NCBI GenBank assembly: GCA_030432295.1
Contig: JAUIHI010000031.1
Location: forward strand, 1 to 64,000
Source of the DNA: Anaerolineae bacterium
GTDB lineage: Bacteria; Chloroflexota; Anaerolineae; Caldilineales; Caldilineaceae
Length of the DNA: 64,000 nt
Reading direction: 5' to 3'
This document shows positions 2,626 through 63,804 of this stretch, piece after piece; positions within the stretch are counted from its first letter, which is position 1; every line of letters starts with the position of its first letter. The notes beneath the pieces are model-generated. The model saw only the letters and a program-made list of their open reading frames with translations, was not told where the DNA came from and did not search any database. The position numbers and the translations under genes were made by a program.

Positions 2626-2682
2626 TACCAAAAGCAAAAGGCCGCTGTCGAGAATCTCGACAGCGGCCTTTTGCTTTTGGTA
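2626..2682. terminator. Perfect 28-bp bidirectional terminator hairpin
   Basis: Bases 2626-2653 and 2655-2682 are exact reverse complements around a single central base. The arms carry A-rich and T-rich outer flanks, so the hairpin can end transcription of the MFS gene on the plus strand and of the tRNA cluster on the minus strand. Its right edge overlaps the encoded CCA end of the tRNA-Arg gene. Confidence 0.85.
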
Positions 2683-2753
2683 CGCCCGGTAGGATTTGAA
2701 CCTACGACTTTTGGCTCCGCAAGCCAACGCTCTATCCACTGAGCTACGGGCGC
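2678..2753 (-). tRNA. tRNA-Arg (anticodon GCG)
   Basis: Read on the minus strand it folds into a standard cloverleaf: acceptor GCGCCCG with CGGGCGT (first pair G-U), D stem GCTC/GAGC, anticodon stem TTGGC/GCCAA with loop TTGCGGA giving anticodon GCG, and T arm GTAGG-TTCAAAT-CCTAC. The discriminator is A and CCA is encoded at 2678-2680. GCG is an unusual arginine anticodon in bacteria, where ACG deaminated to ICG normally reads CGC. Confidence 0.9.
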
Positions 2754-2756
2754 ATA

Positions 2757-2850
<94 letters not shown>

Positions 2851-2881
2851 AAGTTTTTTGTGCCGGATGCGGCCTGACGGA

Positions 2882-2971
<90 letters not shown>

Positions 2972-13534: not shown

Positions 13535-13589
13535 GATTGGAGACTGGGGAGTGGAAAGGAGTCTCCTTTCCACTCCCCAGTCTCCAATC
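13535..13589. promoter_or_regulatory. Perfect 26-bp hairpin between permease and binding-protein genes
   Basis: Bases 13535-13560 and 13564-13589 are exact reverse complements around a 3-base loop. The arm is itself made of heptamers GATTGGA-GACTGGG-GAGTGGA, the same repeat type as the tandem heptamers elsewhere in the window. No T-tract follows, so it more likely blocks exonucleases or uncouples expression of the two genes than terminates fully. Confidence 0.75.
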
Positions 13590-15114: not shown

Positions 15115-15164
15115 TGAAAAGTGAAGCGTGAGATGGTTCGGATGATCTCACGCTTCACTTTTCA
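15115..15164. terminator. Perfect 20-bp hairpin after binding-protein gene
   Basis: Bases 15115-15134 and 15145-15164 are exact reverse complements with a 10-base loop. It lies 36 bases after the binding-protein stop. It lacks a T-tract, so it may act as an mRNA 3' end or a partial terminator between the importer and the following enzymes. Confidence 0.6.
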
Positions 15165-21223: not shown

Positions 21224-23092
21224 TTACCCGTTCGTCTGCCACACTTCCCCGCCGAGGGTCACAGCGGACAGGGCATCTTCCCGCGGGAAGATCGCCACCA
21301 CAGAGCGATCCGCCAGCCCGATGCAGGCCGCTTCGCCCCCATCGACAGGAATCTGCCAAATGCCCCGGTTTGTCGCAGCCAGCAGTGTATCGCCATTCCC
21401 CTGGCCCTGTACTGTCATCACTGTGACAATCTGTACCTCCGGGTCCAGAAAGCGTTGATCTACCACAAGCCCGCCACTCTCCGGGTCGGTGGAAAGTGTA
21501 ATCAACCGGTTCTGCGCGGCCAGGAGCAGGCGCCCCAGCAACTGGGGACGACGGCGTTCATCGGCCAGGGTGAGCAGGCTGAGGGACGGCGAGTCCAGGG
21601 CAAGACCGGCCACGTCATTCCAATTTCGCCCGGCATCGTCCGACTGCCAGACTTCCACCTGAATGTGCTGACCGTCAAATCCACCGGTCACCAGCCAGGC
21701 GCGCAGGTCCTCGGCAAAGAAAGGCGAGAGAGCCACCCCCAGCACATCGCCCTCCGCCTCCGGCGGCGTCAACTCCTCCCAGCTTTCCCCCCGATCCTCC
21801 GACAGGTAGAGATAGCCGTCGATGTCGGCCAATAGGAGCGTGCCGTCTGTGGCGTAGGCCGGGGAGATGGCCAGCCTGCCCACCCCATTGCCCGGCGCGT
21901 CCAGCCGCTGCCATTCGCCCTGCCCCACCCGGCGATAGATGGCGTCGTCGGCCCAGGCGAAAATGGTGAAGCTATCGCCACTGCCCACGCCCGCCACAAA
22001 AGTGCAGACTTCCTCTTCGGTCAAAAAATCCAGCGCTTGCCAACTGCCGCCCCCATCGGTGGAGAGGGCGGAGCCGCCGTCGCTGTCCACCACAAAAAGC
22101 GCCTGCTGGGGGGTCAGCACGGCCAGAGGCGGCGCGTGACCGGTCAACAGACCGGGGCTGCGGCCGTTGGCCGCCTGCCAGGAGCGTCCGTCATCGGTGG
22201 AGGCAAAGAGACCCGCCTGCCACCCCCCTGCCAACAACAGCCCCTCGCGGTCAGCCAGCGCAAAGGCCGCAAAGTCGCCGCCGAGGCAGGGCTGCCAGCT
22301 TGCGCCCCCGTCCTCCGAGCGGAAGAGGCCGAGACCGGTTCCGGCCAGCAGGCAGTTTGGCAGCGCAGCCAGACTGTTGACGCTGTGACCGGCCAGATCG
22401 TCGCCCGCCCGCTGCCAGCTTCCGCCCCCGTCGCTGGAGCGGAAGACCCCATCGGATTCGGTTCCAGCGTAGAGCGCGCCATCGGCAGATTGGGCTATGC
22501 ACTGGACCGCGGCGTCGGGCAAGCCTGTGCCCGATTCCCGCCAGGAACGCCCGCCGTTGCGGGAGCGGAAGAAGCCACCAAAGGCTGTTCCCACCCAAAG
22601 AGTCTCGCTGTCGGCGTAGTCGTCGGCGCAGCGAATGCAGAGGGCGTCCACATCCAGCAGGCCAAAAGTGGAGCTTTCCCAGCTTTCTCCGCCGTCCTGA
22701 GAGCGCAGAGGACCGTCGGCAGTGGCAACAAAAAGGGTGCTGTCATCCCGGTAAATCGGGGAGATAGCAATGGCGACACCCACGCCCAGCCCGACCCAGC
22801 CGGTCAACTCCGGCCAGGTAGCGCCGCCGTCTTCGGAACGGTAGAGCCGTCCGCCTTCGGTGGTGGCGAAAATATGGGGGCCGCTGGCCGCCAACGCCAC
22901 AATCGCTGGATCGGCGGGGCCGCTATCCAGCCGCTGCCAGCTCTGCCCCGCGTCTGCCGATCGAAAGAGACCAGCTTTCGTTCCAGCCAGAATATCGCCG
23001 CCGGGCAGGGCGAGCAGCGCTGTGACAGTTCCGCCGGGCCAGCCACCGGTGTGCTTGAATGTATTGGGTATTGGATATTGGGTATTGGGCAC
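21224..23092 (-). CDS. BNR/Asp-box repeat (beta-propeller) protein
   Basis: Protein of about 622 residues built from repeats of the form LFRSADAGQSWQ, LYRSEDGGATW, FRSRNGGRSW and YLSEDRGESWEEL. These Asp-box repeats form the seven- or more-bladed propellers of sialidases, Vps10 and Ycf48-like proteins. There is no sialidase FRIP motif or signal peptide, so a binding or scaffolding role is more likely than catalysis. The start is uncertain: GTG at 23092 with GAGGA upstream is preferred because the frame upstream overlaps the chaperonin gene. Four TATTGGR heptamers fall inside its first codons. It lies immediately downstream of the chaperonin gene on the same strand. Confidence 0.75.
   Translation of the reverse strand: MPNTQYPIPNTFKHTGGWPGGTVTALLALPGGDILAGTKAGLFRSADAGQSWQRLDSGPADPAIVALAASGPHIFATTEGGRLYRSEDGGATWPELTGWVGLGVGVAIAISPIYRDDSTLFVATADGPLRSQDGGESWESSTFGLLDVDALCIRCADDYADSETLWVGTAFGGFFRSRNGGRSWRESGTGLPDAAVQCIAQSADGALYAGTESDGVFRSSDGGGSWQRAGDDLAGHSVNSLAALPNCLLAGTGLGLFRSEDGGASWQPCLGGDFAAFALADREGLLLAGGWQAGLFASTDDGRSWQAANGRSPGLLTGHAPPLAVLTPQQALFVVDSDGGSALSTDGGGSWQALDFLTEEEVCTFVAGVGSGDSFTIFAWADDAIYRRVGQGEWQRLDAPGNGVGRLAISPAYATDGTLLLADIDGYLYLSEDRGESWEELTPPEAEGDVLGVALSPFFAEDLRAWLVTGGFDGQHIQVEVWQSDDAGRNWNDVAGLALDSPSLSLLTLADERRRPQLLGRLLLAAQNRLITLSTDPESGGLVVDQRFLDPEVQIVTVMTVQGQGNGDTLLAATNRGIWQIPVDGGEAACIGLADRSVVAIFPREDALSAVTLGGEVWQTNG
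23062..23089. repeat. Heptanucleotide tandem repeat (TATTGGR x4)
   Basis: Four contiguous heptamers, TATTGGG-TATTGGA-TATTGGG-TATTGGG, lie at the probable 5' end of the BNR gene. They are of the same class as the GATTGGR arrays at 48311, 49235, 53908, 27164 and 63722. Confidence 0.8.
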
Positions 23093-26665: not shown

Positions 26666-27159
26666 CGCTTGATGTGGATCGCCATACGGGTTTTATGCTT
26701 ATTGACACCCTAATGTCCGGTGATATGAGTCTTTTCCGAAATGCCATCTGGCATCTCCTCTTGCCCAGCTTCGTCCTCAGCACAGTCATTATGCCCATAC
26801 TCGCCCGGCTGACCCGAGCCAGTATGCTGGAAGTCTTGCAGCAGGACTACGTGCGAACGGCCCAGGCCAAAGGGCTGGCACAGCGGGTGGTCGTCATACG
26901 CCACGCGCTAAAGAACGCGCTGTTGCCGATTGTCACCGTTGTGGGCCTTCAGTTGGGCGGTCTGTTGGGCGGCGCGCTGTTGACCGAGACAATCTTCTCC
27001 TGGCCAGGTATGGGGCTATGGACTTACCGCGCCATCCAGAGCCGGGATTATCCGATTGTCCAGGGCGCGGTGCTGGTCAGTGCTACCATTTACGTCTTTG
27101 TCAACCTGCTGGTGGACATCTCCTACGCCTATCTCGACCCACGCATCCGTTATAGTTAA
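26634..27159 (+). pseudogene. 3' fragment of a DppB/OppB-type permease
   Basis: From about 26634 the frame reads QIFPPSARLDVALDVDRHTG, matching the periplasmic loop in the middle of DppB-type permeases, and continues to a normal C-terminus YLDPRIRYS. The EAA-like segment reads DYVRTAQAKGLAQRVVVIRH. About half the permease, including its first helices and any start signal, is missing. The deletion joins it to the binding-protein fragment just upstream. The following DppC-type gene is intact. Confidence 0.85.
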
Positions 27160-27163
27160 TTGG

Positions 27164-27184
27164 GACTTGGGATTGGAGACTGGA
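27164..27184. repeat. Heptanucleotide tandem repeat (three units)
   Basis: GACTTGG-GATTGGA-GACTGGA lies between the permease fragment and the DppC-type gene; complementary words such as CCAATCC follow within 25 bases. Confidence 0.55.
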
Positions 27185-35856: not shown

Positions 35857-36001
35857 AGACAGGACGGCGGACGGGAGACGATAGACGAACGAACGGCGAA
35901 TTGGTTTGTCCTCCGCCTGTCTTCGTTCGGGCCAGTAGGTGCGGTTTCTAACCGCACATTTGGGGAATGTCCGGCAATGTGCGGTTAAAAACCGCACCTA
36001 C
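35855..36001. terminator. Two hairpins between convergent genes, including a GTGCGGTT repeat
   Basis: Just after the isomerase stop, GAAGACAGG-(A)-CGGCGGAC pairs with GTCCTCCGCCTGTCTTC near 35908-35924, an imperfect 17-bp stem made partly of AGACGNN heptamers. Then 35935-35960 and 35976-36001 form a 26-bp stem with one mismatch. Each arm is itself a small palindrome, GTGCGGTT..AACCGCAC, so a cruciform is possible. The second stem overlaps the stop codon of the histidine kinase gene. Confidence 0.7.
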
Positions 36002-38132: not shown

Positions 38133-38201
38133 TTGTATACACGGATAGAAAGGAACACAGATTTTAGAGTAATCTGTGTTCCTTTCTATCCGTGTATACA
38201 A
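38133..38201. promoter_or_regulatory. Perfect 31-bp hairpin upstream of the response regulator
   Basis: Bases 38133-38163 and 38171-38201 are exact reverse complements with the 7-base loop TTAGAGT. The arm contains GTATACACGGATAGAAAGGA, related to the ACGGAT/CACAGATT repeat at 1083-1259. It may terminate the upstream redox-gene transcript before the two-component genes, or act as a mobile repeat. Confidence 0.75.
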
Positions 38202-46395: not shown

Positions 46396-49266
46396 CTAGG
46401 GAGAATCCAGCGCTATCGGGTATGTGTCGCCGATGATTTCGCCATTTACAACGACAGGCAGGCGCACACCGCTGCTCGGCTCATACAGGCCAATCAGCGC
46501 GGTCAATCCCGGCGTCCCAGAAGGAGAAGGGCTGAGAATGTGGGGATCGACAATAATCTCGCCCGGCGTCCAGGTGTTGCTGGGCGCGGCCGTCTGCTTG
46601 CGCCCCGGCACGCCGTCGTCCTGGGCCAGCCGATTCCCTGCGCTGTCGTTGAGGTGGACGAAAACGTTGTGGGGGGGCAAGAGCGTCTGCTCCACCCGCC
46701 AGTAGAGCGTCAGTTCCAGCGTCCCACCCTCAGCCGCGGCAGTGTCGTAGCCGAGGAGGGTGGCGTGGGAACCAAAGAGCGCAGGTTGTTCCAACGGGTG
46801 TTGGGGCTGGGGCGCTTCAAAGGAGACCGCCCGGCGTACAATCGGCAGCGCGGACAAAGCCACGGGAACGCTCTTTGCGCCGGTCTCCGGGTCGCGCAGA
46901 CCCGCCACCAGACGGTATTCCCCTGGCGACAGAGACGCTGGCAGATAGAAGGAGACAGGCAACCGCATTTGACTTCCCAGCGGCCAGCTTGCCACGGGGA
47001 AATCGGGCAGGGGCCAGCCTTCCCACCCGGCCACCCCGTCGCCGTTGCTGTCCAGCAGACTGACGTAGAGTTCCCAGGCGGTGGAAGGGGGCTGATCCAC
47101 TTGCACGAAGAGGCTCAGATTCATCTGCGCACCAGCCAGGGTTGGCACAGCCGAGTCAAAGCCGGACGCGCCCAGAAAGTCGATGCCGTCCCGTGTCACT
47201 GGCTCAGGCAAGGCCATTTGCATGGGCAGACGCAGGCTGGGCAAAGGCGTTGCAGGCGGGTCAATTTGCAGACTGCCGATCCTCGCCACATCGGACAGGC
47301 CCTGGGCGTCAGAGACCGGATAGAGCCAGTCGTCCTCAGCGGGACCGACGCCCAACGCCAGATGATAGAATCCTGGGGGTAGACCGGGTGGAATCAGCAG
47401 GCCAACCCGATCCAATCCGGCCCGATCCAACCCAACCCGATCAGCGACGGGCGGCCAATCGCCCAAGGGCGAATAGTCCCGCTGTGCCCAGATTCGGTTT
47501 TCGTCGTCTTCCAGGCGCAGGGTCACACGCAGGGCCTGGGCCGGGAGTGCATCCCAGCCCAACGCCACAGCCAACACAGCATTGGCAGAGGGCAGAGTAT
47601 CCGCGCCCATCCCCGCTGAGCGCAACTGGACAGCCGCAAAGTCCGCCGATGAATCAGCCGCGGTCGGAATGTCCGCCCGCGCCCAAGCGCTGAGCCGTGT
47701 AGTTGGGCTGTACCAGCGGTTCTCAAAATTGACCGTTGCTTTCCCATTGGAAGAAGGGCTTGTCGAGCGCAAATAGGCTTCGATCTCCCCTTCCAGTATC
47801 CCTCCCAGAGAGAGATGGGCGGGAAACCAGAGTTTGCCCTGTTCCAGTGCCCTGTCAATAGCGGTTTGCACCGAGCCATCCCAGGCCGTGGACGGGGTGA
47901 GCAACGGCCACGGCCCGTACAATCCGCTTTCCCCCCAAACCGGCGCATAGGCCCGCCAGTAGCCCACCTGCCAGGGGAAGACGGCCAGGACAGTATCCGT
48001 ATCGCTGCCCTGCTGCACAGTCTGCCGGATGAGGGGTCGATAGTCGTCGTCGGTGTAGCGGGGCACAGTATAGAAACTCCAGACACCCACGCTGGCCCCT
48101 ATCAGCAGCCCAGCCAGAACGGCCGCGACGCCTCCCCGCGCCCAGGCCAGATGCGTCTGCATCAGATCATCCAGCCAGAGGGCCAGCAGCAGCAGAAAAT
48201 AGGGCAGCACAAAGAGCAGAACCCGCTCGCCGCCAACGGGGAAGAAGGGCAGGCGCAGGTTGAGAAGGAAACCCGCGGCGAAGGGGAGGAGAAGAAGGCT
48301 GGCGAGTAGGGATTGGGGATTGGAGATTGGAGATTGGAGATTGGGGATTGGGAAGTGACGATTAGTTGATACCCGCAAAATCAGGAGAAGCAGGAGCACA
48401 ATCAGCGCCAGCCAGTGGACATTGGCGAGCCAGGGCAGGTCGGGCGGGATGTGGCCGACGGTGAAGGCGGTCAGGTGATGCAGGGTGTAGGCGGCCAGCC
48501 CCAGTGGGCGGTCTGCATCCTCCACAATCTTCTGGCTGACGTAGGGAACGAGCTGAGGCACAGCGTAGAGCAGCCAGGGCAGATAGGCCAGGGCGACGGC
48601 GATCCAGGCGGCAGCCAAGGGCAGGAGTCGGCGTAGCTGGCGGCGGAAATGCCAGAGCGCCCACAGGCCGTGGCAGAGGGGCAGAAGGGCCGCGTAGTAT
48701 TCGGTGTAGAGGAGAGCCGTCGTCGCGGCCGCATAGCCTGCCCAATCCCATCGACTGGATCCTATGCCCGCCCCTCGCCCCTCACCCGTCGCCAACCGCC
48801 AAAAGAAGCCGGTACTCACTATCCCCAGGAGCATCTCCAACCCGTACATGCGCACTTCCTGGCTGTAGAAGATGTGGATGGGGCTGAGTGCCAGCAGAAG
48901 CAGCGCCAAAAGCGCCGCCCGCTGTCGGGCAGGGTAGAAAAGCCGAGCCAACCACCAGATCGCGGGCAGCGAGAGCAGACCGATCAGCACAGAAAAGGAA
49001 CGCAGAAACAGGGGAGAAGCCGAACCGAAGCTGTTCAGCCAGAGATGGAGCAGCGCGTAGTAGAGAGGTGGGTGGATGTCCTGGGCGGTCAGGCGGGCCA
49101 TCTGCCCCAGAGATTCGGTGGCAAAATAGACCGAATAGCCCTCATCCCACCAGAGAGGCTGCCACTCCAAACGGAGCAGACGCAGGCCGAGTCCGATGGC
49201 GCAGAGCAGAAGAGGCAGCCAACGGTTGTAGTGGTATTGGGGATTGGATATTGGGTGTTTCGTCAC
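46396..49266 (-). CDS. GT39/ArnT-like membrane glycosyltransferase with large C-terminal region
   Basis: Membrane protein of 956 residues. The first 400 or so residues hold 10-12 helices with the GT-C signature WWDEGYSVYFATESL after helix 1 and IHPPLYYALLHLW, where the Asp-Glu pair is the catalytic motif of lipid-linked-sugar glycosyltransferases. The C-terminal 450 residues are extracytoplasmic and contain two or more beta-rich segments with SPGEYRLVAGLRDPETG and PPGFYHLALGVG. A six-unit GATTGGR heptamer array lies inside the gene, in a loop between helices, translating as IPNLQSPISNPQS. It probably modifies cell-surface proteins or glycans. Confidence 0.85.
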   Translation of the reverse strand: MTKHPISNPQYHYNRWLPLLLCAIGLGLRLLRLEWQPLWWDEGYSVYFATESLGQMARLTAQDIHPPLYYALLHLWLNSFGSASPLFLRSFSVLIGLLSLPAIWWLARLFYPARQRAALLALLLLALSPIHIFYSQEVRMYGLEMLLGIVSTGFFWRLATGEGRGAGIGSSRWDWAGYAAATTALLYTEYYAALLPLCHGLWALWHFRRQLRRLLPLAAAWIAVALAYLPWLLYAVPQLVPYVSQKIVEDADRPLGLAAYTLHHLTAFTVGHIPPDLPWLANVHWLALIVLLLLLILRVSTNRHFPIPNLQSPISNPQSLLASLLLLPFAAGFLLNLRLPFFPVGGERVLLFVLPYFLLLLALWLDDLMQTHLAWARGGVAAVLAGLLIGASVGVWSFYTVPRYTDDDYRPLIRQTVQQGSDTDTVLAVFPWQVGYWRAYAPVWGESGLYGPWPLLTPSTAWDGSVQTAIDRALEQGKLWFPAHLSLGGILEGEIEAYLRSTSPSSNGKATVNFENRWYSPTTRLSAWARADIPTAADSSADFAAVQLRSAGMGADTLPSANAVLAVALGWDALPAQALRVTLRLEDDENRIWAQRDYSPLGDWPPVADRVGLDRAGLDRVGLLIPPGLPPGFYHLALGVGPAEDDWLYPVSDAQGLSDVARIGSLQIDPPATPLPSLRLPMQMALPEPVTRDGIDFLGASGFDSAVPTLAGAQMNLSLFVQVDQPPSTAWELYVSLLDSNGDGVAGWEGWPLPDFPVASWPLGSQMRLPVSFYLPASLSPGEYRLVAGLRDPETGAKSVPVALSALPIVRRAVSFEAPQPQHPLEQPALFGSHATLLGYDTAAAEGGTLELTLYWRVEQTLLPPHNVFVHLNDSAGNRLAQDDGVPGRKQTAAPSNTWTPGEIIVDPHILSPSPSGTPGLTALIGLYEPSSGVRLPVVVNGEIIGDTYPIALDSP
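48311..48352. repeat. Heptanucleotide tandem repeat (GATTGGR x6) inside a coding sequence
   Basis: Six contiguous heptamers, three ending in A and three in G, span exactly 42 bases, so the reading frame of the glycosyltransferase gene is kept. Array sizes not divisible by three units would shift the frame. Confidence 0.9.
49235..49255. repeat. Heptanucleotide tandem repeat (three units) at a gene start
   Basis: TATTGGG-GATTGGA-TATTGGG lies at codons 4-12 of the same glycosyltransferase gene, translating as PISNPQY on the minus strand. Confidence 0.75.
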
Positions 49267-49388
49267 GGGTGATCCAGAGGGGAAGCCACCAGCAAACAGC
49301 GATCAGTGCGGGTATACCGTCACAGATCACTGCCTGCTGTTGGCTGTTCACTATTTGTTTGTCTCAACCACAGTACCCAATACCGACC

Positions 49389-52522: not shown

Positions 52523-54427
52523 CTACGGCACTGCCAACCGCTCCTCGGCCAGATTCTCAAATCCGCCGTCGGTGGCGCGATAGAGAATCAGCCAGAGGTC
52601 ATCTACCGATCCTGCCGCTCCCAGTCCATAGGCATCCACAATCGTCTCGCCCGGTGCAAAGGAACTGAAGGGACGCAGCCCAAAGACCGGCCCCGTCGCA
52701 TCCTGCTGGGCAGCCCCGTCGCCGCTGCGCACACTGATGGACCAGTCACCGGGTGTGGCGCTCGCGTCTACAGTCCAGAACAATTCCACAGTCAGGCCGT
52801 CATCTTCGCGCACAGAGTAGCCCTGCAACATAATCCCATCGCCCAGTGCTTTGTCCAGACGCACGGCCGGTTCCCGGACCAGTGGCGCTGCCTGGGGCAA
52901 CAGTTCGACCCACGCCCCGCTCCAGCCGTGGACTTGAGGGGACGCAACCGTCAATTCACCCAGCAGCAGGCCAGCCGCATCCGCGGTCACCAGCACTTCG
53001 CCGCCCTGGGCCAACGCTTCGTTCGCCCCTCTTTTGTCCACCACCCGCAGGTCAGGGCGCATCTCCCAAATGTCAATCAGATAGGCAAGCCCTAAGGCAT
53101 CGTCCTTGGCAGCGAAGAGGACTGCACCCGGCGGCGGCGACTGCGCCAGCAATTGGGTGGGACGTTCCAGGGCGGTGTCGTCGGGCCGATCCCGGCTGTC
53201 CGCGGCGGGCAGGGAAGCCAGCCCCCGCCAGAGAATCAGCAGCACCAGCAGGGCCAGGGCTGTATTGCGGATGTCGTATTGGCGGCGGGGGCGCACTGAG
53301 AAGTCAATCTCTTCGCTGGCCCTGGCCGCCTTGCCCGTGCGAATCACCCGTCCGTCGTATCGGTGGACCAGCCCGGCCACCCCCAGCAGCAGCAGGGGAT
53401 AGGCAGGCAGGATGACCTGAAACCAATTGCCGAAACGATCCACCCAGCAGAAAACCGCATAGAGAAGCAGTGTGCCCGCAAGGACCAGCCGCAGCCGCTT
53501 TTCCAGCACCCCAATCCCCGCCAGCCCAAGCACCACCACCGGCACGCTCAGTTCCTGCCAGATCAGTTCGGGAAAGCCGTTGGCAAAGAAGGCCGCGCCG
53601 GGAGCCAGCCCCCAACTCATCTCTTCCTGGCCCTGAGATGTGCTCACGAAACTCCAAAACCACTGGCCCGCACTGGTCCACTCGCCCACGCCCCACCATT
53701 CGGGGTGGGCCGCGCCGCGCAGATAGACATAGACATAGCTGATCAGAGGCAGGGCCGCGCATAGGATGGCCCCGGCCATCAGCCCCGGACGGCGCAGAAG
53801 CTTTGGCTCTTGCCAGAGCACCGCGGCCAGTAGCGGCGGGACGATCAGAGCGACTGTGACCATATGGGCCAGGGCGAGGCCGGAGAGGAAGGAGAGAAGG
53901 AGGAGGAGACTGGGAATTGGGGATTGGTCACGCCAGCGCAGATATACCAGAAGAATGGCCAGTGTATGGGCGATGGCGCTGCTGTACTGTTCGGATGTGG
54001 TGGCGTAGTACCAGAAAAAATAGGTGACCGCGTAAAATGCGGTGAGCAGCCAGGCCAGAGGCCAGTCACCCGTCGGGCGGGCAGGGCTGCGGGTGATGTG
54101 CAGAAGGACCTGATAGAGCAGCCAAAGACTGAGTAGCGCCCAGAGTGTGCTGTAGCTGCTGAGCAGAGGAATGGGATTGGGTGAAACCCCCAGCCCATTG
54201 GCTGCTGTGCGCAGGCCGTGAAACCAGAGCCAGCCGCCCATTGTAAAGATTGGGTAGCCGGGCGCGTTGCCAGGTCGGGCCTGCACCTGGGCGTACTGAT
54301 GGGTGATCAGGTCGCCCCCTTCCAGTTCGCCGGGTCGCAAGCCGTTGTCCAATGTCAGCCAATAGAGCAGGGCCGCAGCCAGCAACAGCACAATCCCGGC
54401 CCGGCGAGGCCAGGGCGAACCGCTCAA
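52523..54427 (-). CDS. DUF2723-type (GT39-like) membrane glycosyltransferase
   Basis: Membrane protein of 634 residues with about 11 helices in the first 430 residues and an extracytoplasmic tail. LEGGDLITHQYAQVQARPGN after helix 1 and PGYPIFTMGGWLW are hallmarks of DUF2723, a GT-C group related to protein O-mannosyltransferases. TTG at 54427 is the start; it overlaps the MscS stop as TTGA, so translation is coupled to MscS. Three heptamers (GACTGGG-AATTGGG-GATTGGT, 53908-53928) fall inside the coding region. It may glycosylate secreted Thr/Pro-rich proteins, which are plentiful here. Confidence 0.82.
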   Translation of the reverse strand: MSGSPWPRRAGIVLLLAAALLYWLTLDNGLRPGELEGGDLITHQYAQVQARPGNAPGYPIFTMGGWLWFHGLRTAANGLGVSPNPIPLLSSYSTLWALLSLWLLYQVLLHITRSPARPTGDWPLAWLLTAFYAVTYFFWYYATTSEQYSSAIAHTLAILLVYLRWRDQSPIPSLLLLLSFLSGLALAHMVTVALIVPPLLAAVLWQEPKLLRRPGLMAGAILCAALPLISYVYVYLRGAAHPEWWGVGEWTSAGQWFWSFVSTSQGQEEMSWGLAPGAAFFANGFPELIWQELSVPVVVLGLAGIGVLEKRLRLVLAGTLLLYAVFCWVDRFGNWFQVILPAYPLLLLGVAGLVHRYDGRVIRTGKAARASEEIDFSVRPRRQYDIRNTALALLVLLILWRGLASLPAADSRDRPDDTALERPTQLLAQSPPPGAVLFAAKDDALGLAYLIDIWEMRPDLRVVDKRGANEALAQGGEVLVTADAAGLLLGELTVASPQVHGWSGAWVELLPQAAPLVREPAVRLDKALGDGIMLQGYSVREDDGLTVELFWTVDASATPGDWSISVRSGDGAAQQDATGPVFGLRPFSSFAPGETIVDAYGLGAAGSVDDLWLILYRATDGGFENLAEERLAVP

Positions 54428-60695: not shown

Positions 60696-60849
60696 CCAAA
60701 AGCCAGATGGATCAGAAGCATACGTAACGATCCCGTAACACCTGAGCAGTAGACTGGGCAACATCAGCGGGTTACAGTTTGCGGGACAGATCACGGACCA
60801 AGCCCACCTTTTGGCAGAGTACCGATGGTTCTCCTGCAAAGAGCCATTT

Positions 60850-60958
60850 GAGCCACTGATAAACGCTGATGGACTCTGATAAAGGCGGGATTCTCTCCCG
60901 AAGTCCTCTGCGCCCCTGCGACTCTGCGTGAAGATTTGACCTTTTTGCAGTGGAGTCA
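60850..60958 (+). repeat. Composite dispersed repeat, copy C
   Basis: GAGCCACTGATAAACGCTGA, then CTCTCCCGAAGTCCTCTGCG, CCCCTGCGACTCTGCGTGAA and ATTTGACCTTTTTGCAGTGG, in the same block order as 24855-24965 and 32228-32330. Confidence 0.85.
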
Positions 60959-60978
60959 CCGATTACAAAGGATTTGCT

Positions 60979-63721: not shown

Positions 63722-63804
63722 GATTGGTGATTGGAGACTTGGGACTTGGGACTGGGAACCGGGGATCGGTACAGGCCGTCTGCCGTCTGCAGTCCGCCGT
63801 CGTC
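63722..63804. repeat. Composite heptanucleotide repeat block (two families)
   Basis: GATTGGT-GATTGGA-GACTTGG-GACTTGG-GACTGGG-AACCGGG-GATCGG is followed 6 bases later by CGTCTGC-CGTCTGC-AGTCCGC-CGTCGTC. This is the only place where the GATTGGR and AGACGGC families adjoin. It fills the gap upstream of the aminotransferase gene. Confidence 0.75.

What the first reader, a model, noticed from the sequence alone, without database searches (positions are those of the whole stretch)
48311..48352. Cyanobacterial-STRR-like heptanucleotide arrays, some inside genes
Six contiguous GATTGGR heptamers lie inside a glycosyltransferase gene, and arrays of 3-7 related units occur at 23062, 27164, 49235, 53908 and 63722. 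The class resembles the CCCCAAT-type short tandemly repeated repetitive sequences known from heterocystous cyanobacteria. In coding DNA, three units equal seven residues, so unit loss or gain would switch frames, giving a possible phase-variation mechanism for surface glycosylation.
Basis: partly seen in the sequence, partly recalled or inferred. Interest (0 to 1): 0.7.

Follow-up and report, generated by a model that had tools for sequence, protein, structure and literature searches.

The report
Heptamer repeats that build matched hairpins
The repeat in this bacterial gene is probably one stray arm of a DNA hairpin family scattered through the genome, whose two arms change together as species diverge; the evidence does not favour its being a switch that turns a sugar-transfer gene on and off.

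Summary
The array is real: six contiguous GATTGGR heptamers at 48311-48352, in frame in a 956-aa membrane protein. ATTGG arrays occur genome-wide (111 matches of a three-unit pattern, 0 of the reversed control). The genome is a Chloroflexota congener of a MAG labelled Litorilinea (Caldilineaceae), not a cyanobacterium. GATTGGG is a rotation of CCCCAAT, so the likeness to cyanobacterial heptamers holds.

They are arms of dispersed palindromes, some with an inner AGTGACG motif; the 48311 array carries that motif and looks like a one-armed copy. ATTGG-type palindromes lie wholly inside genes more often than others (11/32 against 13/310). At one coding site both arms have changed unit together across congeners (GATTGGA, GAGTGGA, GATCGGG, GAACGGG). 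I infer 7-nt slippage plus hairpin template switching.

Phase variation is not supported: all 23 arrays spanned by coding sequence are in frame, and the orthologues found have no internal stops. One unit more or less would truncate the protein near residue 366, but variation within a species could not be tested.

The parts
48311..48352 (+). Six contiguous GATTGGR heptamers, antisense to the gene; encodes about PIPNLQSPISNPQS in frame
48353..48360 (+). AAGTGACG, the inner-flank motif of the palindrome family, directly at the inner end of the array; no right arm follows (one-armed copy)
   Evidence: AGTGACG in the 30-bp inner flank of 7 of 93 arrays against 0.12 expected; position; no partner found
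46396..49266 (-). Predicted membrane protein, 956 aa, GT-C/PMT-like; the array lies in a variable loop between two hydrophobic segments
49233..49255 (+). GG + TATTGGGGATTGGATATTGGG: left heptamer arm at the 5' end of the same gene model (start codon uncertain)
49374..49384 (+). TACCCAATACC, possible displaced right-arm remnant, with an ATCAGTG-type inverted repeat between it and the left arm
   Evidence: the programmed partner test scored below threshold
13535..13589 (.). Perfect 26-bp-arm palindrome between an ABC permease gene and a solute-binding-protein gene; congeners carry palindromes of other heptamers at the same place
15115..15164 (.). Palindrome of the GTGAAAC heptamer family; loop appears inverted between congeners G005 and G001
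23062..23089 (+). Four TATTGGR units near the 5' end of a BNR/sortilin-like repeat protein gene (gene start uncertain)
27158..27184 (+). Degenerate ATTGG-type heptamers; congener G005 has no array here
53908..53928 (+). GACTGGG AATTGGG GATTGGT inside a TMEM260-like O-mannosyltransferase gene (52523-54391, minus)
63722..63757 (+). Two ATTGG heptamers followed by degenerate related units, at the 5' end of an aminotransferase class V gene model

Best explanation
The 48311 array is a one-armed member of a lineage-specific, dispersed family of heptamer-armed DNA palindromes. (1) Shown: arms are tandem ATTGG heptamers (TATTGGR/GATTGGR), the G-rich arm 5', some with TATTTCG or AGTGACG on the inner side. 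(2) Shown: arms of one copy share deviations from the consensus, and at the orthologous sites examined both arms have changed together. (3) Inferred: units are gained and lost by 7-nt replication slippage, and the arms are kept alike by template switching within the transient hairpin, so each site evolves in concert. (4) Inferred: in genes the arrays persist where they fall in frame in permissive linkers; three heptamers are seven codons. The 48311 copy is thus a tolerated low-complexity linker in a membrane protein loop, kept in frame by selection on the protein, and not an on/off switch.
For: Orientation: G-arm first 51, opposite 0 in the own genome; about 418 against 3 pattern placements over 46 genomes of the family; 53 of 93 arrays have a partner on the expected side, 1 on the opposite side. 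Arm sharing: 17 of 28 left-arm deviations are shared by the own right arm, 3.3 expected from other copies. Orthologous sites: own-arm identity 0.94-0.98 against 0.59-0.84 between species at three sites; the coding site C54:58463 carries the palindrome in six congeners with unit GATTGGA, GAGTGGA, GATCGGG, GAACGGG or GATTGGG, and other genera show none. One clear loop inversion (15115, G005 against G001; inverted score 8.5, direct 3.0, none of 500 shuffles reaching 8.5), as template switching predicts. Coding placement: 11/32 ATTGG palindromes wholly in genes against 13/310 others, p=9e-7; 23 coding-spanned arrays all open. Template switching as maker and keeper of hairpins is described elsewhere (PMC8794818; in coding sequence PMC8604942, abstract only).
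Against: The 48311 copy has no right arm here or in the congeners examined, so its membership rests on the unit, the genome-wide family and a single AAGTGACG. A shared inner motif and wide dispersal imply some copying between loci, which slippage and template switching alone do not explain. At some sites congeners carry quite different heptamer families (window 13535; C54:135008), which looks like replacement and not drift. Loop inversion was clear at one site only; most other loop comparisons were uninformative. Site C54:135008 shows little difference between own-arm and cross-species identity (0.87 against 0.85, two species). Other palindrome families have as many open frames per copy (3.6 against 3.1 of 6 for intergenic copies), so freedom from stops does not explain the excess in genes.
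Confidence: 0.55

Rival explanations
1. Phase variation: slippage in the array switches a surface-glycosylation gene on and off.
For: A change of one unit stops translation at residue 366-369; unit number at this site differs among congeners.
Against: 23 of 23 coding-spanned arrays are in frame; listed orthologue matches have no stops; the array is short and impure, in mid-gene, in a linker that varies in all genera; the class also sits in many unrelated genes.
Confidence: 0.06
2. A mobile palindromic element (MITE-like or moved by an unknown transposase), inserted in frame in genes as Rickettsia palindromic elements are; each new copy starts as a perfect hairpin, so arm likeness reflects youth and not homogenisation.
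For: Dispersed copies with a shared inner motif; a site without array in G005 at 27164; frequent in-gene copies; nested palindromes; different families at one orthologous site.
Against: Of five tyrosine-transposase (RAYT-like) loci examined, four are flanked by other palindromes (CCTTCCGGGAAG, GTAGGTGCGG, GTTGGGT, TGTAACGC), one by none, and none by this family; such genes also occur in genomes without the arrays; I recognised no target-site duplication, though I did not search for them systematically; six congeners share one coding position with gradually differing units.
Confidence: 0.25
3. The hairpins are kept because they work in RNA (partial terminators, stabilisers or processing sites between genes); only the pairing is selected, so sequence drifts in compensated steps.
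For: Intergenic palindromes of all kinds favour convergent and avoid divergent gene pairs (202/82/20 against 673/108/141, p=2e-11); very stable folds (about -50 kcal/mol, z about -10); hairpins of different sequence at one intercistronic site in five congeners.
Against: Co-occurrence in G000 and G005 is only marginal (12 both, 14 one only, 15 none; p=0.06); arm concert is also seen inside coding sequence; 48311 itself does not fold as RNA.
Confidence: 0.1
4. G-quadruplex repeats as proposed for Xanthomonas and Nostoc.
For: Same G-rich heptamer class (PMC4692102).
Against: Many units have only GG (GATTGGA, TATTGGA); no preference for four units (63 of 93 arrays have two); the palindromic arrangement favours a duplex hairpin.
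Confidence: 0.04

Closest known systems
G-rich heptamer repeats GGGAATC (Xanthomonas) and GGGGA(C/T)T (Nostoc), Rehm et al. 2015, PMC4692102; cyanobacterial STRR
   Same: GATTGGG is a rotation of GGGGATT/CCCCAAT; dispersed, variable unit number; convergent inverted pairs reported in Xanthomonas (70-75 cases per genome).
   Different: Here in Chloroflexota; TATTGGR is the commonest unit; inverted pairs are common where the Nostoc study found few; mostly two units; an inner motif in part of the copies; arms change in concert at the sites examined.
Rickettsia palindromic elements (Ogata et al. 2000, 2002, as reviewed in PMC10969869)
   Same: Palindromes sitting in frame inside unrelated protein genes.
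   Different: Arms made of tandem heptamers; no fixed reading frame of their own established.
REP/REPIN palindromes with RAYT transposases (PMC3116915, PMC3733652)
   Same: Short dispersed palindromes, many extragenic.
   Different: No end tag recognised, tandem arms, and not found beside the RAYT-like genes examined; the same genome does carry GTAG-started palindromes beside a RAYT.
Coding palindromes of Nematomorpha mitochondria (PMC6649704)
   Same: Inverted repeats kept within coding sequence.
   Different: There both arms encode conserved protein regions; here variable linkers.
Template-switch homogenised hairpins (PMC8794818, PMC8604942)
   Same: Proposed mechanism: hairpin arms made alike, loop inversion.
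   Different: Here the arms are tandem heptamers, so slippage can act as well; the mechanism is inferred, not shown.

Membership tests
G-rich heptamer SSR / cyanobacterial STRR | Tandem heptamer of the GGGGATT (CCCCAAT) class, dispersed genome-wide | tested here: met
G-rich heptamer SSR / cyanobacterial STRR | Host is a filamentous cyanobacterium or Xanthomonas | tested here: not met
   Congener G004 shares contig number and sequence with a MAG labelled Litorilinea aerophila, Caldilineaceae, Chloroflexota
G-rich heptamer SSR (Rehm et al.) | Preference for four units with intact G-tracts | tested here: not met
   63 of 93 arrays have two units; GG-only units common
Contingency locus (phase variation) | Out-of-frame alleles present in genomes | tested here: not met
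   23/23 coding-spanned arrays in frame in this genome; listed orthologue matches have no stops
Contingency locus (phase variation) | Unit number differs between strains or within a culture | not testable with these tools
   One genome per species held; differences between species only
RAYT-moved REP | Flanks a RAYT gene | tested here: not met
   Five RAYT-like loci examined, none flanked by ATTGG palindromes
RAYT-moved REP | GTAG (or CGTC) tag at one end | tested here: inconclusive
   Outer flanks of arrays show no strongly enriched 7-mer; tag position at the palindrome ends was not tested directly
RPE-like coding palindrome | Palindrome in frame inside unrelated genes | tested here: met
   11 of 32 wholly in predicted genes; one site confirmed in six congeners and absent in other genera
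RPE-like coding palindrome | Element encodes a conserved peptide in a fixed frame | tested here: inconclusive
   Similar peptides recur (GYWILDIG...SISNTQYPIP) but frames vary

The most novel reading that the evidence does not exclude
Fixed hairpin niches: in these genomes certain sites keep a tandem-armed hairpin while its sequence is exchanged between unrelated heptamer families or rewritten in both arms at once, by a process that copies a unit across a hairpin and between loci without a classical transposase.
Probability: 0.25. Interest if true: 0.75.

Novelty: new variant of a known kind. Interest (0 to 1): 0.5.

Why it matters
If true, it offers natural sites, some inside genes, where compensated change in hairpin arms can be read across close species without assuming RNA selection. 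This bears on the open question whether paired changes in stems come from selection or from template switching. It also warns that heptamer arrays in coding DNA need not be phase-variable.

Tried and rejected
Chance or base composition: rejected. RAYT as the mover: not supported. Known RNA family: only three tRNAs in the window reach Rfam thresholds. Hidden out-of-frame arrays: one candidate (L030), by inspection an intergenic palindrome. Positional conservation of hairpins as a general rule: only marginal in G000-G005 (p=0.06), so claimed for single sites only. Freedom from stops as the reason for the excess in genes: open-frame counts do not support it. That 1.66 Mb was chosen partly because it held arrays, so its densities are not those of the genome. 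Literature for the exact heptamers in Chloroflexota: none found in the held library. Structure prediction was not run.

Full report
Observation. The window holds six contiguous GATTGGR heptamers at 48311-48352. The three-unit pattern ATTGGNNATTGGNNATTGG occurs 111 times in the 6.7-Mb genome and its reversed control never. In 1.66 Mb fetched from the genome, ATTGG pairs at 7-bp spacing number 147, against 4-29 at spacings of 5, 6 and 8-13; there are 93 arrays of two or more units, with TATTGGG, TATTGGA, GATTGGG and GATTGGA the main units.

Host. A congener (G004, contig 266) carries the same sequence as GTDB contig CAMDEX010000266.1, from a MAG labelled Litorilinea aerophila, placed in Caldilineaceae, Chloroflexota. 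That the two are one genome is my inference from the shared contig number and sequence. The window genome is therefore not cyanobacterial. Among the sampled relatives the arrays are almost confined to this family and vary from 0 to 277 matches. A capped scan of GTDB genomes for the palindromic form returned mostly Chloroflexota and filamentous cyanobacteria, with Saprospiraceae and others.

Anatomy. More than half of the arrays are hairpin arms. Within 150 bp, a GATTGGR-type array is followed by its complement in 20 cases and preceded by it in none. With a looser test 53 of 93 arrays have a partner on the expected side and 1 on the other. Whole-genome patterns give 51 against 0 in the own genome and about 418 against 3 placements in 46 genomes of the family; overlapping placements are counted separately. 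The inner flank is enriched in TATTTCG and in AGTGACG (7 observed, 0.12 expected). The 48311 array has AAGTGACG directly at its inner end but no right arm, so I read it as a one-armed copy. The same 1.66 Mb holds 342 palindromes with 16 or more arm matches; in a shuffled 420-kb contig there were none against 88 in the real one. Many belong to other families, and periods of 7 and 8 bp stand out in the arms.

Coding context. Of the ATTGG-type palindromes 11 of 32 lie wholly within predicted genes, against 13 of 310 others (p=9e-7). Genes were called with a script of my own, so gene starts are uncertain and arrays near 5' ends may be misassigned. At 48311 the array encodes about PIPNLQSPISNPQS in a loop between hydrophobic segments, which varies in length and sequence among all orthologues. 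Congeners G004, G006 and G001 carry heptamers there too, with about 8, degenerate, and 4 units; G005 has none. The matches listed for this gene have no internal stop.

Phase variation. Adding or removing one unit stops translation at residue 369 or 366 of 956. Of 45 distinct arrays of three or more units tested, 23 are spanned by coding sequence and open, 21 are not spanned, and one 'off' candidate is by inspection an intergenic palindrome between two genes. This does not favour a switch, but only one genome per species is held, so variation within a species is untested.

Concerted change. Among dispersed copies, 17 of 28 departures of the left arm from consensus are shared by the right arm of the same copy, against 3.3 expected from other copies. 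At the coding site C54:58463 (a GT4-type glycosyltransferase) six congeners have the palindrome with units GATTGGA, GAGTGGA, GATCGGG, GAACGGG or GATTGGG, and other genera show none. Own-arm identity is 0.94 against 0.77 between species there, 0.97 against 0.59 at window 13535, and 0.98 against 0.84 at 15115. These three sites were picked because the pattern was seen there, so they illustrate and do not sample. At 13535, between an ABC permease and a binding-protein gene, five congeners carry palindromes of different heptamers, one of them AGTAATC and not ATTGG. At C54:135008 two species have ATTGG arms and two have CCGTCGT heptamers instead. Loop inversion, a mark of template switching, is clear at 15115 between G005 and G001.

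Mechanism. I infer slippage in 7-nt steps and hairpin template switching as the forces that keep the arms alike; the latter is described in other systems (PMC8794818, PMC8604942). This does not explain dispersal. The RAYT-like genes examined here are not flanked by this family, and I recognised no target duplication, without a systematic search. A mobile-element reading therefore remains the chief rival, and a role in RNA is possible since intergenic palindromes favour convergent and avoid divergent gene pairs (p=2e-11).

Comparison. The nearest described class is the G-rich heptamer repeat of Xanthomonas and Nostoc, including inverted pairs in Xanthomonas (PMC4692102); STRR sequences that can form hairpins are mentioned in cyanobacteria (PMC2670836). 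In-frame coding palindromes are known as Rickettsia palindromic elements (PMC10969869). The combination of tandem arms, strict orientation, in-gene copies and concerted arm change in Chloroflexota was not found in the held literature, which is not the whole literature.

Noticed in passing
window 35935-36001 and C39 RAYT locus (L343): GTAGGTGCGGTTTNTAACCGCAC palindromes, REP-like with a GTAG start, flank a RAYT-like gene at C39:90912 and are dispersed in the genome.
   Followed up: partly
L342, L345, L038: Other RAYT-like genes each sit among their own palindrome family (CCTTCCGGGAAG, GTTGGGT, TGTAACGCAAGC).
   Followed up: partly
C16:314222-314391 (L046): Nested palindromes: at least one other palindrome lies within the loop of an ATTGG palindrome.
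   Followed up: no
window 38133-38201 and many places in C16, C54: Palindromes TTGTATACACGGAT...ATCCGTGTATACAA, and 8-bp unit families CACAAAGG/CACGAAGA and CGCAGAGA, are abundant.
   Followed up: no
G004 and G002 orthologues of C54:133796-136669 (L370, L377): A CCGTCGT heptamer array stands at the protein loop where G000 and G006 have an ATTGG palindrome.
   Followed up: partly
window 2681-2971: Three tRNA genes in a row on the minus strand.
   Followed up: no
window about 60820-60970: A stretch of about 130 bases matches dozens of places in congener G005, an apparent dispersed repeat.
   Followed up: no
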